Part shown: positions 2,588 through 23,844 of the stretch, piece after piece
Layout: each line of letters begins with the position of its first letter
Numbering within the stretch: the stretch's first letter is position 1
Assembly: GCA_945897985.1 (NCBI GenBank)
Contig: CAMDGN010000005.1
Coordinates: 1-38,613 of the forward strand
DNA length: 38,613 nt
Source: a candidate division WWE3 bacterium
GTDB lineage: Bacteria; Patescibacteriota; WWE3; UBA101185; UBA10185
Reading direction: 5' to 3'
The notes under the pieces: generated by a model
What the model was told of the DNA's origin: nothing
The model's input: only the letters and a program-made list of their open reading frames with translations
The model's database searches: none
Translations under genes and position numbers: made by a program

Positions 2588-4066
2588 ATGGATAATAAAG
2601 GATTAAACACACTAACAAATAGAGACTATTTCAAGGGAGACGTTAAAATTATTAGAAAAGCTAAGCCAGGCCCAGTGGTCTTCATTGTAACCAATGGTTT
2701 AGGTGCAATTGAAGCTGTTATTAAAGACTCAGATTTTAATGTTGGTGATGTAGTTTATATTGAAGGACAAGTTAACGAACATAAAGGAAGAACCCAAGTT
2801 GAACTTAAAGTTATTAAAAAATCAGATACAGATTTCGATACAATAATGTTTGACAGATCAAAACCTATTAGAACTGAAACATCAATCAAATCACAAAGAT
2901 ACGACATCATGAAAGATACCATGGTCGAGATCGCTACAAGAATCAGAATGGCAATCCTAAAGGGACAACCAATCATGATCAGACATCACAACGATTCTGA
3001 CGGATTCATCTCAGGCATGTCTCTTGAATTCTCTATTCTTTCTTTCATGAAAGATCAAGGAATTGACCCTAAATTTTTATTATTCAGAAGCCCATCAAAA
3101 GCTCCTTTTTATACATCTGGTGATGTATTAAGAGATTTAACTTTATCTAAGAGATTCATTGAAGAAGAAAATTCAGATGTAAAACCTTTAGTTATTGTTG
3201 CTGACAATGGCTCAACACCCGAAGATGCTTTTGGTTTAGCTATTCTTAAAACTCTAGGTTATGACGCGATTGTTATCGATCACCACAATCCTGTTGTGAT
3301 TGATGAAAACGGTGTAACTTCTGTTGATAAATACCTTATCGGACACTTAAACCCTTATAAGCTTAAGCTTGATTCAAAAACTTCTGCAGGTCAGCTTTGT
3401 TATGAAATCGGAAGAATGGTTTCTGAGAAATTTGAACTAAACTTAATGCCTGCGGTTGCTGGTATTTCTGATAGATGTGATATTCAAGAAACTCAAGACT
3501 ATATTGATTTAACAGGTAAAACTAGAGAAGAACTTGCGATGATTGGTACTGCAATTGACTACATGTCCTATCAATTAAAGCACGACGCCGGAAAAGGTGT
3601 GTTCAATTTGGTTTTCCAAGATCAAAATTTTGTCAAACTTGTTAATGACGAGGTTAGAGTTGGATTTGAATCTCAACTTCAATGCTCACTTCCATATTTA
3701 AAATCTCAAGAAATCAATGGAGTTAACTTCTCCTACATCGATCTTGCGAAATACACTATGAGGTTTACTTTCCCAGCTCCAGGCGCAGTTCTTTCAAGAA
3801 TTCATGAAATTGCAGCTGCAGAGCATTCTACTGTACCTTCATTAACTGTCGGTATGATCGAGGATATGTTTATTATCAGAGCAAATAAACCTGTTTTACC
3901 AGTTCAAAAAATTATTGACTCACTACAAGCTAAATTCCCAACTGCAAATGTTGATGGCGGAGGTCACGAAATGGCCGGAGCTATCAGATTTGTTTCAGCT
4001 CACAGGGATGAACTACTTGAAGAAATCAAAAATATTTTGAAAAACCAAGTAACAACAATCGCTTAA
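2588..4066 (+). CDS. DHH/DHHA1-family phosphoesterase (archaeal RecJ-like) with N-terminal OB-fold
   Basis: HHNDSDGF, VADNGS, VIDHHNP, C-terminal GGGHEMAGA; OB-like N-terminus ...GDVVYIEGQVNEHKGRTQVEL. Confidence 0.8.
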   Translation: MDNKGLNTLTNRDYFKGDVKIIRKAKPGPVVFIVTNGLGAIEAVIKDSDFNVGDVVYIEGQVNEHKGRTQVELKVIKKSDTDFDTIMFDRSKPIRTETSIKSQRYDIMKDTMVEIATRIRMAILKGQPIMIRHHNDSDGFISGMSLEFSILSFMKDQGIDPKFLLFRSPSKAPFYTSGDVLRDLTLSKRFIEEENSDVKPLVIVADNGSTPEDAFGLAILKTLGYDAIVIDHHNPVVIDENGVTSVDKYLIGHLNPYKLKLDSKTSAGQLCYEIGRMVSEKFELNLMPAVAGISDRCDIQETQDYIDLTGKTREELAMIGTAIDYMSYQLKHDAGKGVFNLVFQDQNFVKLVNDEVRVGFESQLQCSLPYLKSQEINGVNFSYIDLAKYTMRFTFPAPGAVLSRIHEIAAAEHSTVPSLTVGMIEDMFIIRANKPVLPVQKIIDSLQAKFPTANVDGGGHEMAGAIRFVSAHRDELLEEIKNILKNQVTTIA

Positions 4067-4515: not shown

Positions 4516-4761
4516 ATGTTTTATGTTTATATTGTTGAGTGTGTTGATAAAACTTTATATTGCGGATATACCAATAACCTTGAAGCTAGGATTAACGAGC
4601 ATAACAATGGAAAAAACGGCGCCAAATACACTAAAACAAGAAGACCTGTTCATTTGGTATTTTCTGAAAATTTCGAATCTAAATCTAGCGCCATGAAAAG
4701 AGAATACGAAATTAAACAATTATCCAAACTTCAGAAAATAAATCTAATTAACTTACAATAA
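4516..4761 (+). CDS. GIY-YIG nuclease superfamily protein (UPF0213/YhbQ-like)
   Basis: MFYVYIVECVDKTLYCGYTNNLEARINEHN...GAKYTKTRRPVHLV. Confidence 0.85.
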   Translation: MFYVYIVECVDKTLYCGYTNNLEARINEHNNGKNGAKYTKTRRPVHLVFSENFESKSSAMKREYEIKQLSKLQKINLINLQ

Positions 4762-5704
4762 ATACACCACTATACATTCCCATACTACATGAGAAATTTA
4801 TATAACCTTCTTGAATTGGAGTGAACTCAATTATATTTTCCCCCTTTTTCAAAAGTTTATTAATTTTGAGTTCTTTTGAATACAAACTAGCAGCACACGA
4901 TCGCTGATCTATTGAATTTACAATCCATCTTACTGGAACACCTTTTTTTAGATTGATCTTATTTGGTGTGTATCCCGAAATTCCTTGATCCATTCTGATA
5001 ATTTGTACCCCATTAGTTACTTCTAGACTACTACCTAAGACTTTTTCTTCATTCTTAGGCTGAGACAAGATCTCAAATCCCGAACGGATGTTAATTAAAG
5101 CTAAGATAATAATTGAAACTGCCACTACTTTTGAAAATAGTTGTGATTTTAGTGTTGAAATCAAGGATCCTAGCCCCAATAAACCAGGAATTGTTCCTAA
5201 TGAGAATACAAACATTGTCACTGCTCCAGTTTGAAAACTTCCTGAGGCGATTGCAAATAACTGTACAGTTTGAGCAAATCCGCACGGAATCAAAAAGCTC
5301 AAAAAACCAAGAATAGCTGGCTTTATATTCTTGTTTGATTCAAGGATTTTATCTAATTTTAATTTATTCAATATTTTGGGAGAAATCGAGAAATTATAAT
5401 TACTTAGAAATTTAAAAACATCTAAGGATTTAAGACCAAATAACAAGGTCAAAACGCCAATACCTAAAATAATATAAGCATTAAGAGTTTGATTAACTTG
5501 AAAAACAGAGCCGACAAGTCCTAAAATACCTCCCAAAATAGTAAAAGAAACAACTCTTGAGAGATTAAAGTAAATATGCGATTTTATATTTTTATCCAGC
5601 GAAAGAATCACGGAACTGAGAGTTGAGGTACAGGATGAAACACTAGCAATAACTCCAACCATAAATACCGCAGATAGGCTGCTTAGATTTGAATAATCAA
5701 TCAT
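4748..5704 (-). CDS. TauE/SafE (DsbD/CcdA-like) membrane protein with C-terminal cupredoxin-like domain
   Basis: Six TM-like segments, N-terminal SSCTSTL; C-terminal GYTPNKINLKKGVPVRW...FTPIQEGYINFSCSMGMYSGVFIV. Confidence 0.75.
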   Translation of the reverse strand: MIDYSNLSSLSAVFMVGVIASVSSCTSTLSSVILSLDKNIKSHIYFNLSRVVSFTILGGILGLVGSVFQVNQTLNAYIILGIGVLTLLFGLKSLDVFKFLSNYNFSISPKILNKLKLDKILESNKNIKPAILGFLSFLIPCGFAQTVQLFAIASGSFQTGAVTMFVFSLGTIPGLLGLGSLISTLKSQLFSKVVAVSIIILALINIRSGFEILSQPKNEEKVLGSSLEVTNGVQIIRMDQGISGYTPNKINLKKGVPVRWIVNSIDQRSCAASLYSKELKINKLLKKGENIIEFTPIQEGYINFSCSMGMYSGVFIVS

Positions 5705-6758: not shown

Positions 6759-7001
6759 TTAGTTAGGCCAGACTTGCTCACCTGTTGTAGCATCGGTCAG
6801 GATAATTGCTTTAACAGGGCAAGATTGTGCTGCCATCATTATAATTTCAGCAGTTTCGTTTGCTCCCTCGATGACTACTGCTTTTCTTTCGTCATCTAAT
6901 TGAAAAACAGTTGGAGCAAATGCGACACAAGAAGCTGCACCAATACAAGTATCTCTAAGAACTTTTACTTTTAAATTACCAATTTGTACTTCTTTGTCCA
7001 T
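6759..7001 (-). CDS. Single-cluster ferredoxin
   Basis: KVLRDTCIGAASCVAFAPTVFQLDD...AAQSCPVKAI; likely start MDKEVQIG with SD-like aaagg, rather than the longer listed ORF. Confidence 0.85.
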   Translation of the reverse strand: MDKEVQIGNLKVKVLRDTCIGAASCVAFAPTVFQLDDERKAVVIEGANETAEIIMMAAQSCPVKAIILTDATTGEQVWPN

Positions 7002-7014
7002 AAAATACCTTTCT

Positions 7015-7872
7015 TTATAAATACTTATTAAATACATTATCCATGTTTTTTCGATCAAGGGGTATATCAATTAAAGGTTTACTTTCTAATTGAACATAAT
7101 GAGACTCAAGAGTTGGCTTCTCTTCAATATAAAAAATACCAAGGGGAATCTTTTTTTCACCAAATTCATGTGCTCTTTCAAAAGCTTTAGTTTTATTTTT
7201 AGGATCGTAGGAATCCTCTAAATAATAAACATTATCTTGATAAAATTGATGCGTTAGAATTTTATTATAAGTTTCACATGGCTGCAGGATATCAATAATT
7301 GCAAAACCTTTATGTTCGTTGGCTTTTTTTATTATTTCAGTTAATTGTTTAACATCGGAGCCATACGCTCTAGCTACAAATGTAGCACCAGACGCTATTG
7401 CCATAACGAGAGGATTAATTGGATTATCTGGATTTCCGGTTGGTGTTGATTTAGTTTTAACTTCGTGTTCAGTTAGTGGTGAGGCTTGGCCTGTTGTTAA
7501 TGCGTAAAGCCCGTTATCGTGAAGCATGATTGTAATGTCATGGTTTCTTCTTGCTGCATGTATAAAGTGATTGCCACCTTCTCCAAAACAATCGCCATCA
7601 CCAGTAAAAACAAAAACGTTTAATCTAGTATTTGCAAGTTTCACCCCACTAGCCAGTGGAAGAGGTCTTCCATGTAAGCCTTCAAATGAGGTTAGTTTAG
7701 TGAAATTTACTAAGTGCCCGTGACACCCAATTCCTGCAATAATTGAAGTGTTGGTGTTATCCCAGCCATTTTCAATCGCAGCATTTTTAAACGATAACCA
7801 GATAGTGAAATTTCCACAACCTGGGCACCAGTTTGGCATGATAGGAGTTGCTAGATCGGCCATTGTTGTCAT
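7015..7872 (-). CDS. 2-oxoacid:ferredoxin oxidoreductase, beta (TPP-binding) subunit
   Basis: NWCPGCGNF, GIGCHGH, TGDGDCFGEGGNHFIHAARRN, NGLYALTTGQASPLT. Confidence 0.93.
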   Translation of the reverse strand: MTTMADLATPIMPNWCPGCGNFTIWLSFKNAAIENGWDNTNTSIIAGIGCHGHLVNFTKLTSFEGLHGRPLPLASGVKLANTRLNVFVFTGDGDCFGEGGNHFIHAARRNHDITIMLHDNGLYALTTGQASPLTEHEVKTKSTPTGNPDNPINPLVMAIASGATFVARAYGSDVKQLTEIIKKANEHKGFAIIDILQPCETYNKILTHQFYQDNVYYLEDSYDPKNKTKAFERAHEFGEKKIPLGIFYIEEKPTLESHYVQLESKPLIDIPLDRKNMDNVFNKYL

Positions 7873-7873
7873 G

Positions 7874-9592
7874 TTATTTTTTTAACCTTTCGTTAATAAT
7901 ATCTTTAATATCTTCAACAAAGAAAGGCCTACCATCAAATTTTAGGATTTTGTCAGTAATATCGATTCCGGTGTGTTGTCTGATTAAAATTGCTAATTGT
8001 CCTGAATAATTACATTCAAGAATAACCAGTTTTTTGGCATTTTTTAAAATATTAATGATTTCATCGACTGGAAACGGGTTCATCCAGGTTAAATGCAAGT
8101 AATTAACATTTGTATATTCTTCTAACGCTTGAATAATAGATCCTTTGTTACTCCCCCATGAAACAATAGTTAAATCTGCGTTTTCGTTTCCATAAATTGT
8201 AGGCTTTGGTAAATCGTTTTTGATGAAAGTTTGTAACTTTCTCATTCTTTTATTCATTTGATTGTTTCTATTCTCAATCTCTTCATTCGAAAATCCCTTC
8301 TCGTCGTGCTCGTCTGAATTAGCAATAAAGAAATTTCCAACTCCAGGAATTGTTCTTGGTGAAATCCCATCCTCGGTAATTAAAAATCTTTTAAATTCTG
8401 GAGAAAATTCTGTTGTCATTTTTCCTCTATCAATTCGGTAGTCTGAAATATCGAATTTTGGAACTGACTGCTCGTGTTCGAGGATATTTTTATCAAGTAA
8501 AACAACAACCGGGGTTTGATATTTGTCAGCTAGATAGAAAGCTTCCATAGTCATGTAAAATGCTTCTGTTAGATCACCTGCAGCAAGTACAAGTCTTGGA
8601 AACTCGTCTTGATGTGCATTTAAAACAAACAATAAGTCTCCTTGAGAGTTCCAGGTTGGAAGTCCTGTTGCAGGGCCAGGCCTCATTCCTTCAATAATAA
8701 CTAAAGGTGTTTCGGTAATTCCGGCCAGACCATAACCTTCTGTCATTAGACAAAAACCGCCTCCAGATGTTGCGGTCATTGACCTTGCTCCGGCAAAGGA
8801 GGCGCCTATTGCCATTACAATAGCTGAGATCTCATCCTCGGGTTGCTTAAAAATAAATTTAAATTCAGTTTGAAGTTTTGCTAAATTGGAAAGAACCCCT
8901 GTTATTGGAGACATCGGGTAAATTGCAGAAAACTGTAAACCCGAAGCAACAGCAGCTAAGGAGACAGAATCGCTACCATTTAAGATCATTCTAGACTCCT
9001 TTTTGTGGTTTTGTAATTTAAAGCATGACTCAATTAAATCTTTAAAATTTTCCTGAGCGTATTTATATCCGTGCTCAATTGCTAAAATATCAGCTTTTAA
9101 TATTTCAGGCTTATCATGATATTCTTCTTCAACTAATGTCTGTAAGACAGTCATGTCCCCTTGCATCATTCCTGCAACAACACCTAGAGCAACCATATTG
9201 ATTAAGATATCCTGCCCTCCGATTTCATGAGCCATTTTAGATAAAGGAACTGAAAGAAGTTTTACTGAATTTGGCAAAGATTCAACTTTAATTTTAGAGG
9301 CACCATCGTATAAAACAAAAGCTCCTTCAGATAAAGAATTTTTATGTTTATGGATTGATTCCTGATTTAAGGCCACCAGAAAATCTGTTAATTTGCTTGG
9401 CCCGCTTACTTCTCCGTCAGAAATATTGATTTGCATAACATTATGTCCGCCTCTAATAAGTGAGGGGTATTCAAAGTAATTGTAAATATTGAAACCAGAT
9501 CTGGTTGCAAACCTTGCAAATGTTAGACCAGAGGATTTAATTCCTTGACCAGCTTGACCAGCAATTTTTAATTTATAAACTTTAGTAGGCAT
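7874..9592 (-). CDS. 2-oxoacid:ferredoxin oxidoreductase, fused gamma-alpha subunit
   Basis: KIAGQAGQGIKSSG (gamma); GSDSVSLAAVASGLQFSAIYPMSPITG and TSGGGFCLMTEGYGLAG (alpha). Confidence 0.93.
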   Translation of the reverse strand: MPTKVYKLKIAGQAGQGIKSSGLTFARFATRSGFNIYNYFEYPSLIRGGHNVMQINISDGEVSGPSKLTDFLVALNQESIHKHKNSLSEGAFVLYDGASKIKVESLPNSVKLLSVPLSKMAHEIGGQDILINMVALGVVAGMMQGDMTVLQTLVEEEYHDKPEILKADILAIEHGYKYAQENFKDLIESCFKLQNHKKESRMILNGSDSVSLAAVASGLQFSAIYPMSPITGVLSNLAKLQTEFKFIFKQPEDEISAIVMAIGASFAGARSMTATSGGGFCLMTEGYGLAGITETPLVIIEGMRPGPATGLPTWNSQGDLLFVLNAHQDEFPRLVLAAGDLTEAFYMTMEAFYLADKYQTPVVVLLDKNILEHEQSVPKFDISDYRIDRGKMTTEFSPEFKRFLITEDGISPRTIPGVGNFFIANSDEHDEKGFSNEEIENRNNQMNKRMRKLQTFIKNDLPKPTIYGNENADLTIVSWGSNKGSIIQALEEYTNVNYLHLTWMNPFPVDEIINILKNAKKLVILECNYSGQLAILIRQHTGIDITDKILKFDGRPFFVEDIKDIINERLKK

Positions 9593-12420
9593 TATGAGAA
9601 GCTCTCTGTATAAATTCTATCTGGATGACAGCCATTAGCAAGGAGCAAATCAGTCACATCAGAAATCATATTCCTGTGTCCGCAAAGATAAGCAGAAACT
9701 TTATCCGCATTATGATAATCTCTTTTTATAATTTCAGTTATAAAACCTTTATTTCCTTGCCATTCTGAGGTTGGGTCGGCCACACTTATTTCATAACTAA
9801 AGTTTGGATATTGTTTTTTTAATTCTTCAAGATGGTCAACCCAAAAAATTTCGGAATCATGAGTTAGTCCAAAATAGAGTTTAATTTTTTTGGTAAATTT
9901 TGATTCTTTAAGGGTACAGTCTATCAAACATCGCGTTGCACTCATTCCAGAACCTGTCGCCATAAATAATATTTCTTCAGAACCATCTTGTGGATTGAAG
10001 ACAAATTTACCAAAAGGACCTAAAAAGTCCATTGAATCACCTTCTTTTAAATTATCGAAAAATTGAGATCCAGGACCGCCAGGCCTTGAGTCAACTAACA
10101 AGTCAAAGTGCTTATTATCAGTTCTTGTGGCTATTGAGTAGGCTCTGATAGTGTTTGGTGCTACTTTAACGCTTATATATTGTCCTGGAATAAACTCAAA
10201 CGGTGAGCTTAATTCAAAGCTGCTGTGATGAAATTTAGATGATAAATTCTTATTCGAAGTTGTCTGAGCAGTTATAAATTTAGGACCCTTTGCTTGAAGT
10301 GAGGTTGGAACCAAATCCTTCATTAGGACTTTAGAATCTACAGCCCAGATGTCACTTTTAGTTATTATCAAAGGATTTATTTCGATTTCTTTAGCTTCAG
10401 GGATTATATGCTCTAGTTTTGAAAAATGAATTAACACTTTAACAAGCTCATCAATATTTACTTCGCTCTTTTGAATAATTTTGTTTATTTTCGAATTAAG
10501 AATTAAGTTCTTGGCTTGTAGATGGTTCATTGGAAGCAAGTGAATATTTTTATCCATTATTATTTCGACAAAAGATCCACCAGCCCCAAATAGTATTAAA
10601 TAACCAAATACAGGATCAATTTTCATTCCAACAATTACTTCAATCCCGTTTTCTACTTGTTTTTGAATTTGAATCTGTAAATTCTTCATTTCGGTCTTTA
10701 ATTGAATTTTATTGAAAGCATCTTGAAGTTCCTGGTCGCTTTTAATGCCGGTAATCACTCCCCCAGCATCCAGTTTATGAAGCATTCCCTGGCCTGAAAG
10801 TTTAAGGACTATTGGATAGTTATTTTGAGAAACAAATTCTCTAGCCTCCTCAATTTTTAAAATATATCTGGAAGCCGGAGTTTTAATTCCAACATAGTTC
10901 ATTAATTTATCAGCCTCGATATTTTCTAAAGTTATATGTTTTTCGTTAATAGAGTGTTGGATTATCTTTCTCACTTCATCCTCTTCTTGAATCTTAGAAA
11001 TTGTTTCATAAGAGTTATCGTGGTCACTGGATGAATTTAAATCAATTGATTTCTTATATCTCCACATAGAACCAATAGCTTTAATGGCTCGTTCAGGAAA
11101 CCTATAGACTGGAATTTTATTTTTATTCAAAATTTCTTCGCCTTTAGCAATATTTGTACCTCCGATAAACGAGCAAATGATAGGTTTTTTGTATTTCGAT
11201 GAAACGTAAGAGATGTATTCAGCAGTTTTTTCGATTTGAGTCATTATTTGAGGAGTTAGTAAGAATAGTACATAATCAACATTTGAATTTTCAATTACAA
11301 TTTCTGCTGAATGCCCATACCTTTCGGCCAAAGCATCGCCCATTAAATCTAGAGGGTCATGAAAACTCGCAGATCTTGGAAGAATTTTTCTAAGTTTTGA
11401 AGTTGTAGCTTCGTTAAATTCAATTAAATTTAAGCCTTCTAATACAACAGCGTCAGCGGAAATAACAGCTGGTCCACCGGCATTGGAGATTATTGCTACG
11501 TTTGGTCCAGCGGGAATTTGAGACCAAGCAAATGATTTTGTAATATCAAAAAAATCTTCCATACTTGAACACCTAATAATTCCAGCCTGCTTGAGTGCCG
11601 CATCTAAAACATCATCCTCGCCTGCAATTGATCCGGTATGTGACTTCATTGCAGAAGTCGCGGCGGATGTTTTTCCCGGCTTAATAATAAAGATTGGGTG
11701 TTTTTTAGAAAGTTCAGAAGCAATTTTTATGAATTCAACCCCATTTGAAATAGATTCAAGATACATTCCAATTGAAAAGTTAGATGAATCCCCTTCTCTA
11801 TCTGAAATAGATTTAAAATAATTTAAAATATCATTTTCATTAATATCGCTTTTATTTCCGATAGTTATAAATTCCCCAAAACCAAGACCGATTGAATTAG
11901 CCCAGTCAAAAATACTAGCTGCAATCGCTCCAGATTGGGAAATAAATTTTATATTTCCGACATCCTTAACTGACTCTCCAAAAGTTGCATTAAGCCCAAT
12001 ATTGTTATTTACAAAACCTAGGCAATTAGGGCCTAATAAATTAAGTTCGTTTTCAGAGATAAGTTTCAGCAGTTTTTCTTCTAAAACCTTCCCCTCTTCA
12101 CCGATTTCTTTAAAACCTGATGCATAGAGCACAATATTTTTAATACCTTTTTGAGCAACCTGAGAGATTACATCAAGCGAGATTTCTGAAGGAAGTGAAA
12201 TAGCAACCAAATCACATCCGTCCGGAATAGAAAAAATATCGGGATAACACTTTCTGCCATTTATTTCAGTTGTATTTGGGTTAATTGGGTAAATATCTCC
12301 TTTGAATCCCGAGTTAATAATATTTCGAAGAATAATTGACCCGACTTTTTCTGGAGTTCTGGAAGCACCTATAATTGCAATAGATTTAGGGTTAAAAAAT
12401 AAATTTAAATCTTTAGGCAT
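9592..12420 (-). CDS. Fusion: ADP-forming acyl-CoA synthetase (alpha+beta) with C-terminal FNR-type flavoreductase
   Basis: One 942-aa ORF: CoA-binding FFNPKSIAIIGASRTPEKVG; LLGPNCLGFVN; SHTGSIAGEDDV (ACD catalytic His); ATP-grasp GGSFVEIIMD...EINPLII; then IPGQYISVKV..RAYSIATRTDN..GGPGSQFFDNLKEGD..LGPFGKF..MATGSGMSATR..YLCGHRNMI (about 9592-10320). Confidence 0.92.
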   Translation of the reverse strand: MPKDLNLFFNPKSIAIIGASRTPEKVGSIILRNIINSGFKGDIYPINPNTTEINGRKCYPDIFSIPDGCDLVAISLPSEISLDVISQVAQKGIKNIVLYASGFKEIGEEGKVLEEKLLKLISENELNLLGPNCLGFVNNNIGLNATFGESVKDVGNIKFISQSGAIAASIFDWANSIGLGFGEFITIGNKSDINENDILNYFKSISDREGDSSNFSIGMYLESISNGVEFIKIASELSKKHPIFIIKPGKTSAATSAMKSHTGSIAGEDDVLDAALKQAGIIRCSSMEDFFDITKSFAWSQIPAGPNVAIISNAGGPAVISADAVVLEGLNLIEFNEATTSKLRKILPRSASFHDPLDLMGDALAERYGHSAEIVIENSNVDYVLFLLTPQIMTQIEKTAEYISYVSSKYKKPIICSFIGGTNIAKGEEILNKNKIPVYRFPERAIKAIGSMWRYKKSIDLNSSSDHDNSYETISKIQEEDEVRKIIQHSINEKHITLENIEADKLMNYVGIKTPASRYILKIEEAREFVSQNNYPIVLKLSGQGMLHKLDAGGVITGIKSDQELQDAFNKIQLKTEMKNLQIQIQKQVENGIEVIVGMKIDPVFGYLILFGAGGSFVEIIMDKNIHLLPMNHLQAKNLILNSKINKIIQKSEVNIDELVKVLIHFSKLEHIIPEAKEIEINPLIITKSDIWAVDSKVLMKDLVPTSLQAKGPKFITAQTTSNKNLSSKFHHSSFELSSPFEFIPGQYISVKVAPNTIRAYSIATRTDNKHFDLLVDSRPGGPGSQFFDNLKEGDSMDFLGPFGKFVFNPQDGSEEILFMATGSGMSATRCLIDCTLKESKFTKKIKLYFGLTHDSEIFWVDHLEELKKQYPNFSYEISVADPTSEWQGNKGFITEIIKRDYHNADKVSAYLCGHRNMISDVTDLLLANGCHPDRIYTESFS

Positions 12421-20786: not shown

Positions 20787-21542
20787 ATGAATCCATATTT
20801 TACCAAAGCTATAGTATTGTCCAAAGAATTAATAAAATCAGGTTTAAATGACTCCCCTAGCCTCCTAAAACTTACAATTAAACTTATTAATCCAGAAATT
20901 AAGCCTTTTAGACCAGGGCAATTTGTTACTTTTAGAATTTCTGAAGGAATATTTAGAGCCTATTCAATTGCCTCAGATTACAAAAATTTCTCGGAATATT
21001 CTTTTCTAATATCAATTGGTCATGAAGGTATTGGGGCTAATTATTTTAAATCTATCGAAGTTGGTGAGGACGTTGATTTTCTAGGGCCCAATGGACATTT
21101 TAAAATTGAATCCCCAGTTTCGGATAATATTGTCATTCTTGCAACAGGAACCGGAATTGCACCCTTTATACCAATGCTTGAATTTCTATTTGATAATAAC
21201 TGTAATTCTAAAATTGCCTTAATCCACGGAATAAAAAACGAAGCAAACTTAAACTTTTACCAAAAAATCCATAAAGAGTTAGGTGAAAAATGTGAAAATT
21301 TTATCAGCTATATGTATGTTTCAAGGCCCGAAACATCTTCCAATCTATTTATCAAAGGAAGGGTTTCTGATGAAGTTAAAAAACTTGATCTAATAAAACA
21401 TATAAAAACTCAATTCTACCTATGTGGCCACCCTGATATGGTTTCAGAAGTCACTGAGTATTTATTACAAGCCGGTATTCCAGAGAGAAACATTATTTCA
21501 GAAGTTTTTACTTCCCCAGGTTTCTATCAAAGAGAAAAATAA
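20787..21542 (+). CDS. Stand-alone FNR-type FAD/NAD(P) oxidoreductase
   Basis: FRPGQFVTFRI, RAYSIASDY, LGPNGHF, LATGTGIAPFIPML, YLCGHPDMV. Confidence 0.88.
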   Translation: MNPYFTKAIVLSKELIKSGLNDSPSLLKLTIKLINPEIKPFRPGQFVTFRISEGIFRAYSIASDYKNFSEYSFLISIGHEGIGANYFKSIEVGEDVDFLGPNGHFKIESPVSDNIVILATGTGIAPFIPMLEFLFDNNCNSKIALIHGIKNEANLNFYQKIHKELGEKCENFISYMYVSRPETSSNLFIKGRVSDEVKKLDLIKHIKTQFYLCGHPDMVSEVTEYLLQAGIPERNIISEVFTSPGFYQREK

Positions 21543-21566
21543 ATTCTTTTATGCTAATATTTAAAC

Positions 21567-21905
21567 ATGGCAAGTAAATCAAAGTCTACAGAAAATCTGG
21601 AGTTAGTCGGTCACTTTGTACATCTTACAGGTATTTTTCTATCTTTTTTGGGTCCTTTAATTTTGTACTTAATGTATAAAGATAAAGCTAATGATTTTGT
21701 TAAATCTAATATAATTGAAGCGTTAAATTTTCAACTTACAGGATTGGTTGCTCTTTTTGTTTGTATTATTATTCCGATTTTAGGCTGGTTCCTTCTACTC
21801 CCAATCGTTTCTCTTATTTTACTAATTTTACCTATCTTAGCTACAATCGAATCTGCGAACGATAGAAAATATAAATACCCAATTAAAATTGAATTTATAA
21901 AGTAA
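21567..21905 (+). CDS. DUF4870/Tic20-like membrane protein
   Basis: HLTGIFLSFLGPLILYLMYKDKANDFVKSNIIEALNFQLT. Confidence 0.8.
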   Translation: MASKSKSTENLELVGHFVHLTGIFLSFLGPLILYLMYKDKANDFVKSNIIEALNFQLTGLVALFVCIIIPILGWFLLLPIVSLILLILPILATIESANDRKYKYPIKIEFIK

Positions 21906-22381
21906 TGACTAGAACACTAAAACCAAACATTCACAGATTTACATCACTTTTAGAACACTCTAGAATTTTAATCTTATACATGGCTTGGATTATTGCCATT
22001 GTTGCATTTTTAGGAAGTATTACTTTTTCTGAAATTCTAAAACTAACTCCTTGTAAATTATGCTGGATTCAAAGAATTTGCATGTTTCCTTTAGTTTTTA
22101 TTTTAGGAGTAGGAATTGTTTATAAAGATGAAAAAGTTCCTTTTTACGTTTTACCTCTATCTTTAACTGGCTTAGCCATTTCTTTTTACCATGTTCTTTT
22201 ATATAGAGGTTTGGTACCTGAATCTAAAGCTTTGTGCGAAGCTGGTATTTCATGCACGACCAAATACATTGAATTTTTCGGATTTTTAAGCATACCAGCC
22301 CTCTCCTTTTTAGCATTTTTAGCCATCTCAGGATTAATGTTTTATTATCACTCCCTTAGACATAGCCATCAAACTGAGTAA
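21905..22381 (+). CDS. DsbB/BdbC-like disulfide bond formation protein
   Basis: CKLCWIQRICMFPL and CEAGISC in a 4-TM protein; start overlaps previous stop. Confidence 0.88.
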   Translation: MTRTLKPNIHRFTSLLEHSRILILYMAWIIAIVAFLGSITFSEILKLTPCKLCWIQRICMFPLVFILGVGIVYKDEKVPFYVLPLSLTGLAISFYHVLLYRGLVPESKALCEAGISCTTKYIEFFGFLSIPALSFLAFLAISGLMFYYHSLRHSHQTE

Positions 22382-23844
22382 TGACAACTGCTGCCTTAAT
22401 TTTTCCAAACCAATTATTCAAAAGTTCTGATCTTTTTAAATTGTCTGAGAATATTTATTTAATTGAGTACACTTTATTTTTTGGTGAGAGTAAAAATATC
22501 TCTAATTTTCACAAAAATAAAATTGTTTTGCACAGAGCTTCAATGAAACATTACTATGAAAATATTTTATCTAACTATAAGCCTCATTATATCGACTATA
22601 AAAATACCGATTTCGATTCAATATTCTCTAAACTTGGGTCGATTAAGAAACTCTATATTTATGAACCAAAGGATTTCTTAATTGAGAAGAGAATTAAAAA
22701 ATACTGCAAATTAAATGATATAGAGTTAATCCAGATTGAAAACCCTTCATTTCTAACTCCACCAAGTGTTTATAATGAATATTTTGAAAAACATAAATAC
22801 TTTATGACCCCATTTTATATTGAGCAGAGAAAGAGATTGAAGGTTCTAATTGATAATAATCAAAAACCCCTTCACGGAAAATGGACCTTTGATACTGAAA
22901 ACCGACTCAAACTCCCAGCCACAATTGAGGTACCTGAAACAAAAATATTTGGAAATAATTCCTATGTAAAGGAAGCAAAGGAGTATGTAGATTCTAATTT
23001 CTCCCAAAATATAGGTACTCATGAAAATTTCATCTACCCAATTAATCATGCAGAGGCATTAAAAGCTTTACATGAATTTTTAAAGGAAAAATTAAATGAT
23101 TTTGGTCCCTACGAAGATTCAATTTCTCAAAAGCATGTCTTTAATTTTCATAGTGTTCTATCCTCTTCTTTAAACATAGGGCTTTTAACTCCTTCGGAAG
23201 TCTTAAAGGAAACACTAAAGTTCGCTGAAGAAAACAAAGTACTCTTTTCTTCACTGGAAGGTTTTATCAGACAAATTATCGGGTGGAGGGAATTTATGAT
23301 GATTGTTTATGTTAGAGATGGGGTAACAGAAAGAAACTCCAACTTTTTTGAGCATAAAAGAAAATTACCAAAAAGCTTCTATGACGGTACGACAGGCATA
23401 AAGCCAGTTGATGACACCATTAAAAAGGCTTTAAAGTATGGTTATTCACACCACATTGAAAGATTAATGATTCTAGGAAATTTCATGTGTCTTTGTGAAA
23501 TTGATCCCGATGAAATATATAGGTGGTTTATGGAATTTTATATTGATTCTTACGACTGGGTAATGGTTCCTAATGTTTATGGAATGAGCCAGTATGCTGA
23601 CGAAGGATTAATTACAACCAAACCTTATATCTCCTCTTCTAACTATATTCTTAAAATGTCGGATTATAAAAAAAATGAAGATTGGTGTGAAATATGGGAC
23701 GGATTGTTTTGGAGGTTTTTACACAAAAATAAAAATAAAATTTCTTCTAATTCTAGAATTGGAATGCTTGTAAAAACAAATTCATTTGAAAAAGTTAAAG
23801 ACAAAATTAAAATTGCTGATGAATTTTTAGATAAATTGAAGTAG
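22381..23844 (+). CDS. Cryptochrome/photolyase-related protein (COG3046/PhrB-like)
   Basis: IFPNQLF, HRASMKHY, FIRQIIGWREFM, RLMILGNFMCL, DWVMVPNVYGMSQYADEG. Confidence 0.9.
   Translation: MTTAALIFPNQLFKSSDLFKLSENIYLIEYTLFFGESKNISNFHKNKIVLHRASMKHYYENILSNYKPHYIDYKNTDFDSIFSKLGSIKKLYIYEPKDFLIEKRIKKYCKLNDIELIQIENPSFLTPPSVYNEYFEKHKYFMTPFYIEQRKRLKVLIDNNQKPLHGKWTFDTENRLKLPATIEVPETKIFGNNSYVKEAKEYVDSNFSQNIGTHENFIYPINHAEALKALHEFLKEKLNDFGPYEDSISQKHVFNFHSVLSSSLNIGLLTPSEVLKETLKFAEENKVLFSSLEGFIRQIIGWREFMMIVYVRDGVTERNSNFFEHKRKLPKSFYDGTTGIKPVDDTIKKALKYGYSHHIERLMILGNFMCLCEIDPDEIYRWFMEFYIDSYDWVMVPNVYGMSQYADEGLITTKPYISSSNYILKMSDYKKNEDWCEIWDGLFWRFLHKNKNKISSNSRIGMLVKTNSFEKVKDKIKIADEFLDKLK

What the first reader, a model, noticed from the sequence alone, without database searches (positions are those of the whole stretch)
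9592..12420. ADP-forming acyl-CoA synthetase fused to an FNR-type flavoreductase
One uninterrupted 942-aa ORF has the whole ACD architecture (CoA-binding, catalytic-His SHTGSIAG region, ATP-grasp to EINPLIITKSDIWAVDSKVLMKD). It then continues with a full FAD/NAD(P)-binding FNR module (RAYSIATRTD, GSQFFDNLKEGD, LGPFGKF, MATGSGMSATR, YLCGHRNM). ACD makes ATP from acyl-CoA, while FNR proteins move electrons between ferredoxin and NAD(P). Joining them couples the two products of an OFOR, acyl-CoA and reduced ferredoxin, in one polypeptide. I do not recall this fusion as a described family.
Basis: partly seen in the sequence, partly recalled or inferred. Interest (0 to 1): 0.86.

Follow-up and report, generated by a model that had tools for sequence, protein, structure and literature searches.

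The report
ATP-making enzyme fused to electron-carrier reductase
In a group of tiny, poorly known bacteria, the enzyme that makes ATP from acyl-CoA is built as one protein with a flavin enzyme that probably passes electrons between ferredoxin and NAD(P)H, which may explain how these cells balance electrons during fermentation and how their odd two-part hydrogenase is wired.

Summary
Observation confirmed. Window 12420-9592 (minus strand) is one intact 942-aa ORF: a complete ADP-forming acyl-CoA synthetase (ACD, ~1-700), a flexible linker, and a complete FAD/NAD(P)H reductase domain (~714-942). It is not an assembly artefact: the same fusion (48-59% identity) occurs across Patescibacteria, in 14 genomes, 10 genera and 5 families counting the window's (two split by contig ends). 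Both halves are under strong purifying selection.

The fusion heads a four-gene operon: ACD-FNR, OFOR alpha, OFOR beta and a mono-cluster ferredoxin (7001-6759). That ferredoxin occurs in all fused genomes; unfused ACD-OFOR operons carry a flavodoxin or an SDR instead. Thirteen of 14 fused genomes (not the window's) have a 'hyd2'-like [NiFe] hydrogenase, 12 on the same contig. Elsewhere such hydrogenases sit beside the same kind of ferredoxin plus a non-homologous PF07992 reductase. So the FNR domain is most likely the module's NAD(P)H:ferredoxin oxidoreductase.

Neither activity has been assayed; 'coupling' means physical tethering, not shown energetic coupling. New variant of a known kind, offering a testable answer to what partners hyd2, which Jaffe et al. 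2020 left open.

The parts
9592..12420 (-). ACD-FNR fusion gene, 942 aa
   Evidence: one open frame; six Pfam domains in order; conserved full length in 11 other genomes
10321..12420 (-). ACD part, residues 1-700 (CoA-binding, phospho-His and ATP-grasp domains)
   Evidence: Pfam; best solved relatives 8wzu and 4xyl; YLESI 220, SHTG 260, LHK 547, EINP 680
10282..10320 (-). flexible linker, about residues 701-713
   Evidence: pLDDT under 50 at 704-712; variable in the alignment
9595..10281 (-). FNR-like domain, residues 714-942 (FAD- and NAD(P)-binding, no 2Fe-2S domain)
   Evidence: FAD_binding_6 and NAD_binding_1; BenC 1krh best by sequence; model pLDDT 93.6, NqrF, GcoB, BenC and Fre by fold
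7874..9592 (-). OFOR gamma-alpha fused subunit, 572 aa; start overlaps the ACD-FNR stop (TAATG)
   Evidence: TIGR03710 618 bits against cut-off 483; overlap seen; YPMSP motif at 225
7015..7872 (-). OFOR beta subunit, 285 aa
   Evidence: TIGR02177 324 bits against cut-off 262; candidate cluster cysteines 16, 19, 50, 199
6759..7001 (-). mono-cluster ferredoxin, 80 aa, three cluster cysteines (CIGAASC...CP)
   Evidence: Fer4_13 47.8 bits against cut-off 24.5; aligned to P. furiosus ferredoxin; conserved in all fused genomes

Best explanation
A bifunctional fermentation enzyme of some Patescibacteria. The N-terminal 700 residues are an ADP-forming acyl-CoA synthetase that turns the acyl-CoA made by the adjacent OFOR into acid plus ATP through a phospho-histidine. 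The C-terminal domain is an FAD-containing NAD(P)H:ferredoxin oxidoreductase that exchanges electrons between NAD(P)(H) and the mono-cluster ferredoxin encoded at the end of the same operon. That ferredoxin serves OFOR and, in most relatives, a soluble hyd2-like [NiFe] hydrogenase. The tether keeps the two steps that clear OFOR's products (acyl-CoA and reduced ferredoxin) in one protein at 1:1 ratio. Shown: the fusion, its conservation and selection, the four-gene layout, the association with ferredoxin and hydrogenase, and replacement of the FNR domain by other carrier or reductase genes. Inferred: both activities, the substrate (probably pyruvate to acetate), cofactor preference (NADH-like), direction of electron flow, any channelling.
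For: Conserved fusion in 14 genomes of 5 families; dN/dS 0.03-0.06 in both halves; operon with overlapping or near-touching genes, same gene order in relatives. The operonic ferredoxin is in all 14 fused genomes and missing from unfused ACD-OFOR operons, which carry flavodoxin or an SDR. In G319 the same module has an unfused ACD and a separate PF07992 ferredoxin-reductase-type gene beside the ferredoxin; G109 and G288 also pair that reductase with the ferredoxin and hydrogenase. FNR domain resembles NADH reductases that serve iron-sulfur partners. Fer2 proteins not found, and classical two-cluster ferredoxins (Fer4_9) in only 2 of 23 genomes.
Against: No activity measured. The ferredoxin lacks the second cluster cysteine, so a [3Fe-4S] cluster is predicted; from general knowledge such clusters are usually less reducing than OFOR-type ferredoxins, which makes ferredoxin-to-NAD flow less easy. 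The FAD-motif Arg (RAYS) is replaced by Asn in several fused relatives. G039 has the same hydrogenase and OFOR with neither FNR fusion nor operonic ferredoxin, so the FNR domain is not always needed.
Confidence: 0.68

Rival explanations
1. Same parts, opposite main direction: NAD(P)H from glycolysis reduces the ferredoxin through the FNR domain, and the ferredoxin feeds hydrogenase, so H2 is the sink for glycolytic NADH.
For: Hydrogenase in 13 of 14 fused genomes; FNR closest to NADH-consuming reductases; three-cysteine ferredoxin resembles those fed by NADH reductases in P450 systems (CYP51-ferredoxin fusion 6mcw among hits).
Against: The window genome has no detectable hydrogenase, yet keeps the fusion; OFOR in the same operon supplies electrons to the same ferredoxin.
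Confidence: 0.35
2. The FNR domain accepts electrons straight from the OFOR beta [4Fe-4S] cluster, making an NAD(P)-linked 2-oxoacid oxidoreductase; the ferredoxin serves something else.
For: OFOR genes touch the fusion gene; ACD and OFOR are linked in fused and unfused forms.
Against: The ferredoxin tracks the FNR domain rather than OFOR: unfused ACD-OFOR operons lack it.
Confidence: 0.12
3. The FNR domain is a free-flavin reductase or oxygen-scavenging NADH oxidase; the fusion is only a co-expression convenience.
For: E. coli Fre is among the structural neighbours; stand-alone FNRs exist in the same family.
Against: Specific co-occurrence with the operonic ferredoxin and substitution by flavodoxin or PF07992 reductase.
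Confidence: 0.1
4. Assembly or frameshift artefact joining two genes.
For: None found.
Against: Same full-length frame at 48-59% identity in 11 other genomes of five families.
Confidence: 0.01

Closest known systems
Single-chain NDP-forming acyl-CoA synthetases (ACD), e.g. Nitrosopumilus 4-hydroxybutyrate-CoA ligase (8wzu) and Korarchaeum ACD1 (4xyl)
   Same: Domain order, phospho-His loop and ATP-grasp
   Different: No reductase domain; the window protein scores below the acetate-specific cut-off of TIGR02717 (502 against 567 bits), so the substrate is not assigned
PatZ/Pat-type protein acetyltransferases (9it0, 9isq) and DMSP lyase DddX (7cm9)
   Same: ACD-like core; PatZ also carries an extra C-terminal domain
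   Different: The PatZ extra domain is a GNAT acetyltransferase (general knowledge), not an FNR
NADH-dependent oxygenase reductases (BenC 1krh, GcoB 5ogx, MmoC 1tvc) and NqrF
   Same: FAD and NAD modules, motifs and fold of the C-terminal domain
   Different: Those carry their own 2Fe-2S domain or sit in a membrane complex; here that domain is absent and an ACD is fused in front
hyd2 [NiFe] hydrogenases of CPR bacteria (Jaffe et al. 2020, PMC7304191)
   Same: Hydrogenase linked to the fusion in relatives has a short small subunit and no beta or gamma; that paper also reports NAD-binding hits, PF07992 proteins and an iron-sulfur family near some hyd2
   Different: Its main text has no occurrence of 'fused', 'fusion' or 'ADP-forming' and leaves hyd2 function uncertain; identity with hyd2 is by description, their tree was not rerun
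Group 3b sulfhydrogenase gamma subunit (Pyrococcus SHI, 9nez_C, 9nf0_C)
   Same: FNR fold; among structural hits (rank 40 and 42)
   Different: Lower similarity; the PF10418 iron-sulfur module is absent

Membership tests
NDP-forming acyl-CoA synthetase (ACD) | CoA_binding, Succ_CoA_lig, Ligase_CoA_2 and ATP-grasp_5 in one chain | tested here: met
   all above gathering scores
NDP-forming acyl-CoA synthetase (ACD) | phospho-His motif and beta-side His motif | tested here: met
   SHTG at 260 and LHK at 547, conserved in the aligned members
NDP-forming acyl-CoA synthetase (ACD) | acetate--CoA ligase alpha equivalog (TIGR02717 cut-off) | tested here: not met
   502 bits against 567; family membership stands, acetate specificity is not assigned
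NDP-forming acyl-CoA synthetase (ACD) | ATP formation from acyl-CoA, ADP and Pi | not testable with these tools
   needs enzyme assay
FNR-like flavoreductase superfamily | FAD_binding_6 and NAD_binding_1 with RxYS, GSG and CGxxxM motifs | tested here: met
   Arg of RxYS present in the window protein, replaced by Asn in several relatives
ferredoxin-NADP reductase (plant/cyanobacterial PetH type) | PetH equivalog cut-off | tested here: not met
   49 bits against 600
Group 3b hydrogenase gamma subunit | PF10418 iron-sulfur module after the FNR | tested here: not met
   no match in 18 genomes; not in the window protein
2-oxoacid:ferredoxin oxidoreductase (two-subunit type) | gamma-alpha fused subunit and beta subunit above curated cut-offs, beta cluster cysteines | tested here: met
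   TIGR03710 and TIGR02177; Cys 16, 19, 50, 199
mono-cluster [4Fe-4S] ferredoxin | four cluster cysteines CxxCxxC...CP | tested here: not met
   second Cys is Ala in all aligned homologues; [3Fe-4S] predicted
hyd2 [NiFe] hydrogenase (linked genes in relatives) | group 3b-like large subunit with both Ni-binding cysteine pairs, short small subunit, no beta or gamma beside it | tested here: met
   RICGTC and DPCMSC conserved, small subunit ORFs 161-201 aa, no PF10418; hydrogenase not found in the window genome
hyd2 [NiFe] hydrogenase (linked genes in relatives) | placement in the hyd2 clade of the published large-subunit tree | not tested
   tree of PMC7304191 not rerun

The most novel reading that the evidence does not exclude
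ACD-FNR, OFOR, the three-cysteine ferredoxin and the hyd2 hydrogenase form one soluble fermentation unit in which the FNR domain stands in for the missing gamma (NAD(P)H) subunit of hyd2 and the ferredoxin for its missing beta subunit. Electrons from the 2-oxoacid and from NAD(P)H would be merged into H2 while the tethered ACD makes ATP from the same turnover.
Probability: 0.25. Interest if true: 0.82.

Novelty: new variant of a known kind. Interest (0 to 1): 0.62.

Why it matters
Patescibacteria have tiny genomes and poorly understood energy metabolism. This fusion shows, in one gene, that acyl-CoA-driven ATP synthesis and ferredoxin/NAD(P)H exchange belong to the same module. It names concrete candidate electron partners (a dedicated ferredoxin and its reductase) for the two-subunit hyd2-like hydrogenase, whose missing subunits and function were left open in the 2020 survey of CPR metabolism (PMC7304191). 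The ACD-FNR protein, OFOR and ferredoxin are soluble and expressible, so the question is directly testable in vitro.

Tried and rejected
Assembly artefact: rejected by 11 independent full-length homologues. OFOR linked to classical two-cluster ferredoxins: a CxxCxxCxxxC pattern scan gave mostly chance hits (the backwards control was about as frequent in many genomes), and the single hit in the window genome contains a stop codon; Fer4_9 matched in only 2 of 23 genomes and Fer2 in none. FNR as a true sulfhydrogenase gamma subunit: rejected, no PF10418 and BenC/NqrF-like instead. Fusion outside Patescibacteria: no FNR or OFOR hit above 50 bits in 76 further ACD loci from many phyla, but that set came from one pattern-limited scan and is not exhaustive. 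Origin of the fusion: fused ACDs cluster, but forks inside the cluster are weak; one gain with two losses fits and separate origins are not excluded (in one search one row was wrongly labelled fused because its name ended in 'f', corrected). An FNR remnant after the unfused Daviesbacteria ACD (L022) was looked for and not found. Literature searches on the fusion gave no paper describing it.
Full report
Observation. The minus-strand ORF 12420-9592 is 942 aa with no internal stop. Pfam finds, in order, CoA_binding_2, Succ_CoA_lig, Ligase_CoA_2, ATP-grasp_5, FAD_binding_6 and NAD_binding_1, each above its gathering score. Motifs of both halves are intact: YLESI 220, SHTG 260, LHK 547, EINP 680, RAYS 759, GPFG 801, ATGSG 821, CGHRNM 913. 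An AlphaFold model from 22 aligned sequences has mean pLDDT 85, and the stretch between the halves (704-712) is disordered. The FNR domain modelled alone reaches 93.6. Foldseek places the first part on single-chain ACDs (8wzu) and PatZ, and the second on NqrF, BenC, GcoB and Fre.

Not an artefact. The window lies in a 584-kb, 92%-complete genome. I place it in Patescibacteria (CPR): the four closest ACD records from named genomes are titled Patescibacteria, Daviesbacteria and Uhrbacteria, and G008 of the same family has its fusion on a contig of the same length (10657) as record JAHYJU010000033 of Patescibacteria isolate KA30. The same architecture, full length and in frame, is found in G005, G008, G010 and G022-G025 (same family), G041 (same class), and G094, G220 and G274 (other families). 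G009 and G018 carry it split by contig ends. With the window that is 14 genomes, 10 genera and 5 families, at 48-59% identity to the window protein. An alignment of 12 members shows conserved catalytic motifs on both sides of a variable linker. Between close relatives dN/dS is 0.03-0.05 for the ACD part and 0.05-0.06 for the FNR part, so both are maintained. In a sample of 380 genomes of the phylum, 91 have a strong match to the query and 13 of those are fused. In 76 further ACD loci from many phyla no FNR or OFOR hit above 50 bits was seen, a limited sample.

Operon. The ACD-FNR stop overlaps the start of OFOR gamma-alpha (TAATG). OFOR beta follows after 1 bp, and an 80-aa mono-cluster ferredoxin (7001-6759) after 13 bp with a ribosome-binding-like AGAAAGG. 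OFOR alpha and beta exceed the curated cut-offs of TIGR03710 and TIGR02177, and beta has cysteines at 16, 19, 50 and 199 for one [4Fe-4S] cluster. The ferredoxin matches Fer4_13 but aligns to P. furiosus ferredoxin with Ala at the second ligand; all aligned homologues read C-I-x-A-x-x-C...CP. That predicts a [3Fe-4S] cluster. The order ACD-FNR, OFOR alpha, OFOR beta, ferredoxin is kept in the fused genomes examined.

What tracks the FNR domain. The operonic ferredoxin is present in all 14 fused genomes at 86-176 bits; genomes of the same family without the fusion have only more distant paralogues (under 70 bits) or none. ACD-OFOR operons without the FNR domain also lack this ferredoxin: in G098 and G281 a flavodoxin follows OFOR beta, and in G038 and G039 a short-chain dehydrogenase does. 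In G319 the same module is present (ferredoxin, ACD, OFOR beta, OFOR alpha, hydrogenase, HycI-like protease, DUF6390, EamA) with an unfused ACD, and a PF07992 pyridine-nucleotide reductase of the rubredoxin/ferredoxin-reductase type lies next to the ferredoxin. G109 and G288 also have ferredoxin plus that reductase beside their hydrogenase. Replacement of the FNR domain by a non-homologous NAD(P)H:ferredoxin-reductase-like gene is the strongest argument for its function.

Hydrogenase link. Thirteen of the 14 fused genomes, all but the window's, have a [NiFe] hydrogenase; in 12 it, or a piece of it, shares a contig with the operon or part of it. Its large subunit (433 aa, RICGTC and DPCMSC intact) is nearest the alpha subunit of Thermococcus/Pyrococcus group 3b enzymes; its small subunit is short (161-201 aa by ORF). 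Among 380 genomes the 72-77%-identity clade of this hydrogenase occurs in 13: 12 carry the fusion and one (G039) an unfused ACD-OFOR operon. The next relatives are at most 54% identical. Fisher p is about 1e-20, not corrected for relatedness. No DHODB_Fe-S_bind (gamma-subunit module) exists in any of 18 genomes. This fits the description of 'hyd2' in Jaffe et al. 2020 (PMC7304191): truncated small subunit (mean 164 aa), no consistent beta or gamma, gamma-like NAD-binding hits in the vicinity but not on the same strand, some PF07992 proteins and an iron-sulfur family nearby, function uncertain. The ACD-FNR fusion would be a natural source of some of those gamma-like hits; that is my inference, and their tree was not rerun.

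Mechanism. OFOR splits a 2-oxoacid into acyl-CoA, CO2 and electrons. ACD converts acyl-CoA to acid and ATP. The small ferredoxin carries the electrons and the FNR domain exchanges them with NAD(P)(H). In most relatives the hydrogenase can take or give electrons as H2. The fusion places both product-clearing steps in one chain. Direction is open: NADH-type relatives and a three-cysteine ferredoxin favour NADH-to-ferredoxin flow (NADH disposal as H2), while supply from OFOR favours ferredoxin-to-NAD. 'Coupling' should be read as tethering; no energetic coupling is shown. No hydrogenase was detected in the window genome, so there NAD(P)+ is the only electron acceptor identified so far.

Evolution. 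ACD trees put the fused members in one cluster with a few unfused ACDs (G038, Daviesbacteria L022, L023, G383). One gain with later losses is the simplest reading, but support inside the cluster is weak. Fused and stand-alone patescibacterial FNRs share about 29-35% identity.

Limits. All evidence is comparative and structural. The search outside Patescibacteria was shallow.

Verdict. Real, conserved, undescribed as far as I could search, and made of known parts; the novelty lies in the architecture and in the module it reveals.

Noticed in passing
window 6759-7001 (-): Small ferredoxin with Ala in place of the second cluster cysteine; a distant paralogue of it sits in the same genome at G000:C1:11618-11824 beside SUF-like and NifU-like genes.
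   Followed up: partly
L107:15998-16603, L113:19340-19864, L210:7633-8124 and homologues: Short hydrogenase small subunit in which the usual CxxC of the proximal cluster reads CxxD (FTC[SC]EDS), so Asp may be a cluster ligand.
   Followed up: no
L107:13583-14299, L139:14001-14723 and homologues: DUF6390 and an EamA transporter recur beside this hydrogenase in fused and unfused lineages; DUF6390 shows a weak HypC-like match, suggesting a maturation role.
   Followed up: partly
window 20787-23844 (+): Cluster of a stand-alone FNR-like protein, DUF4870, DsbB and a photolyase-related (DPRP) protein; a redox cluster of unknown purpose. Stand-alone FNRs recur in the family.
   Followed up: no
window 4748-5704 (-): One protein joins a DsbD_2-type membrane domain to a cupredoxin-like domain.
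   Followed up: no
window 2588-4066 (+): Relative of the archaeal Hef-associated nuclease (285 bits, below its cut-off of 840) in a bacterial genome.
   Followed up: no
L113:9013-9771, L116:12406-13191, L111:504-1322, L211:8439-9239, L023:8175-8984: A short-chain dehydrogenase gene recurs beside the ACD or OFOR genes in several lineages, fused and unfused; possibly an NAD(P)H-consuming partner.
   Followed up: no
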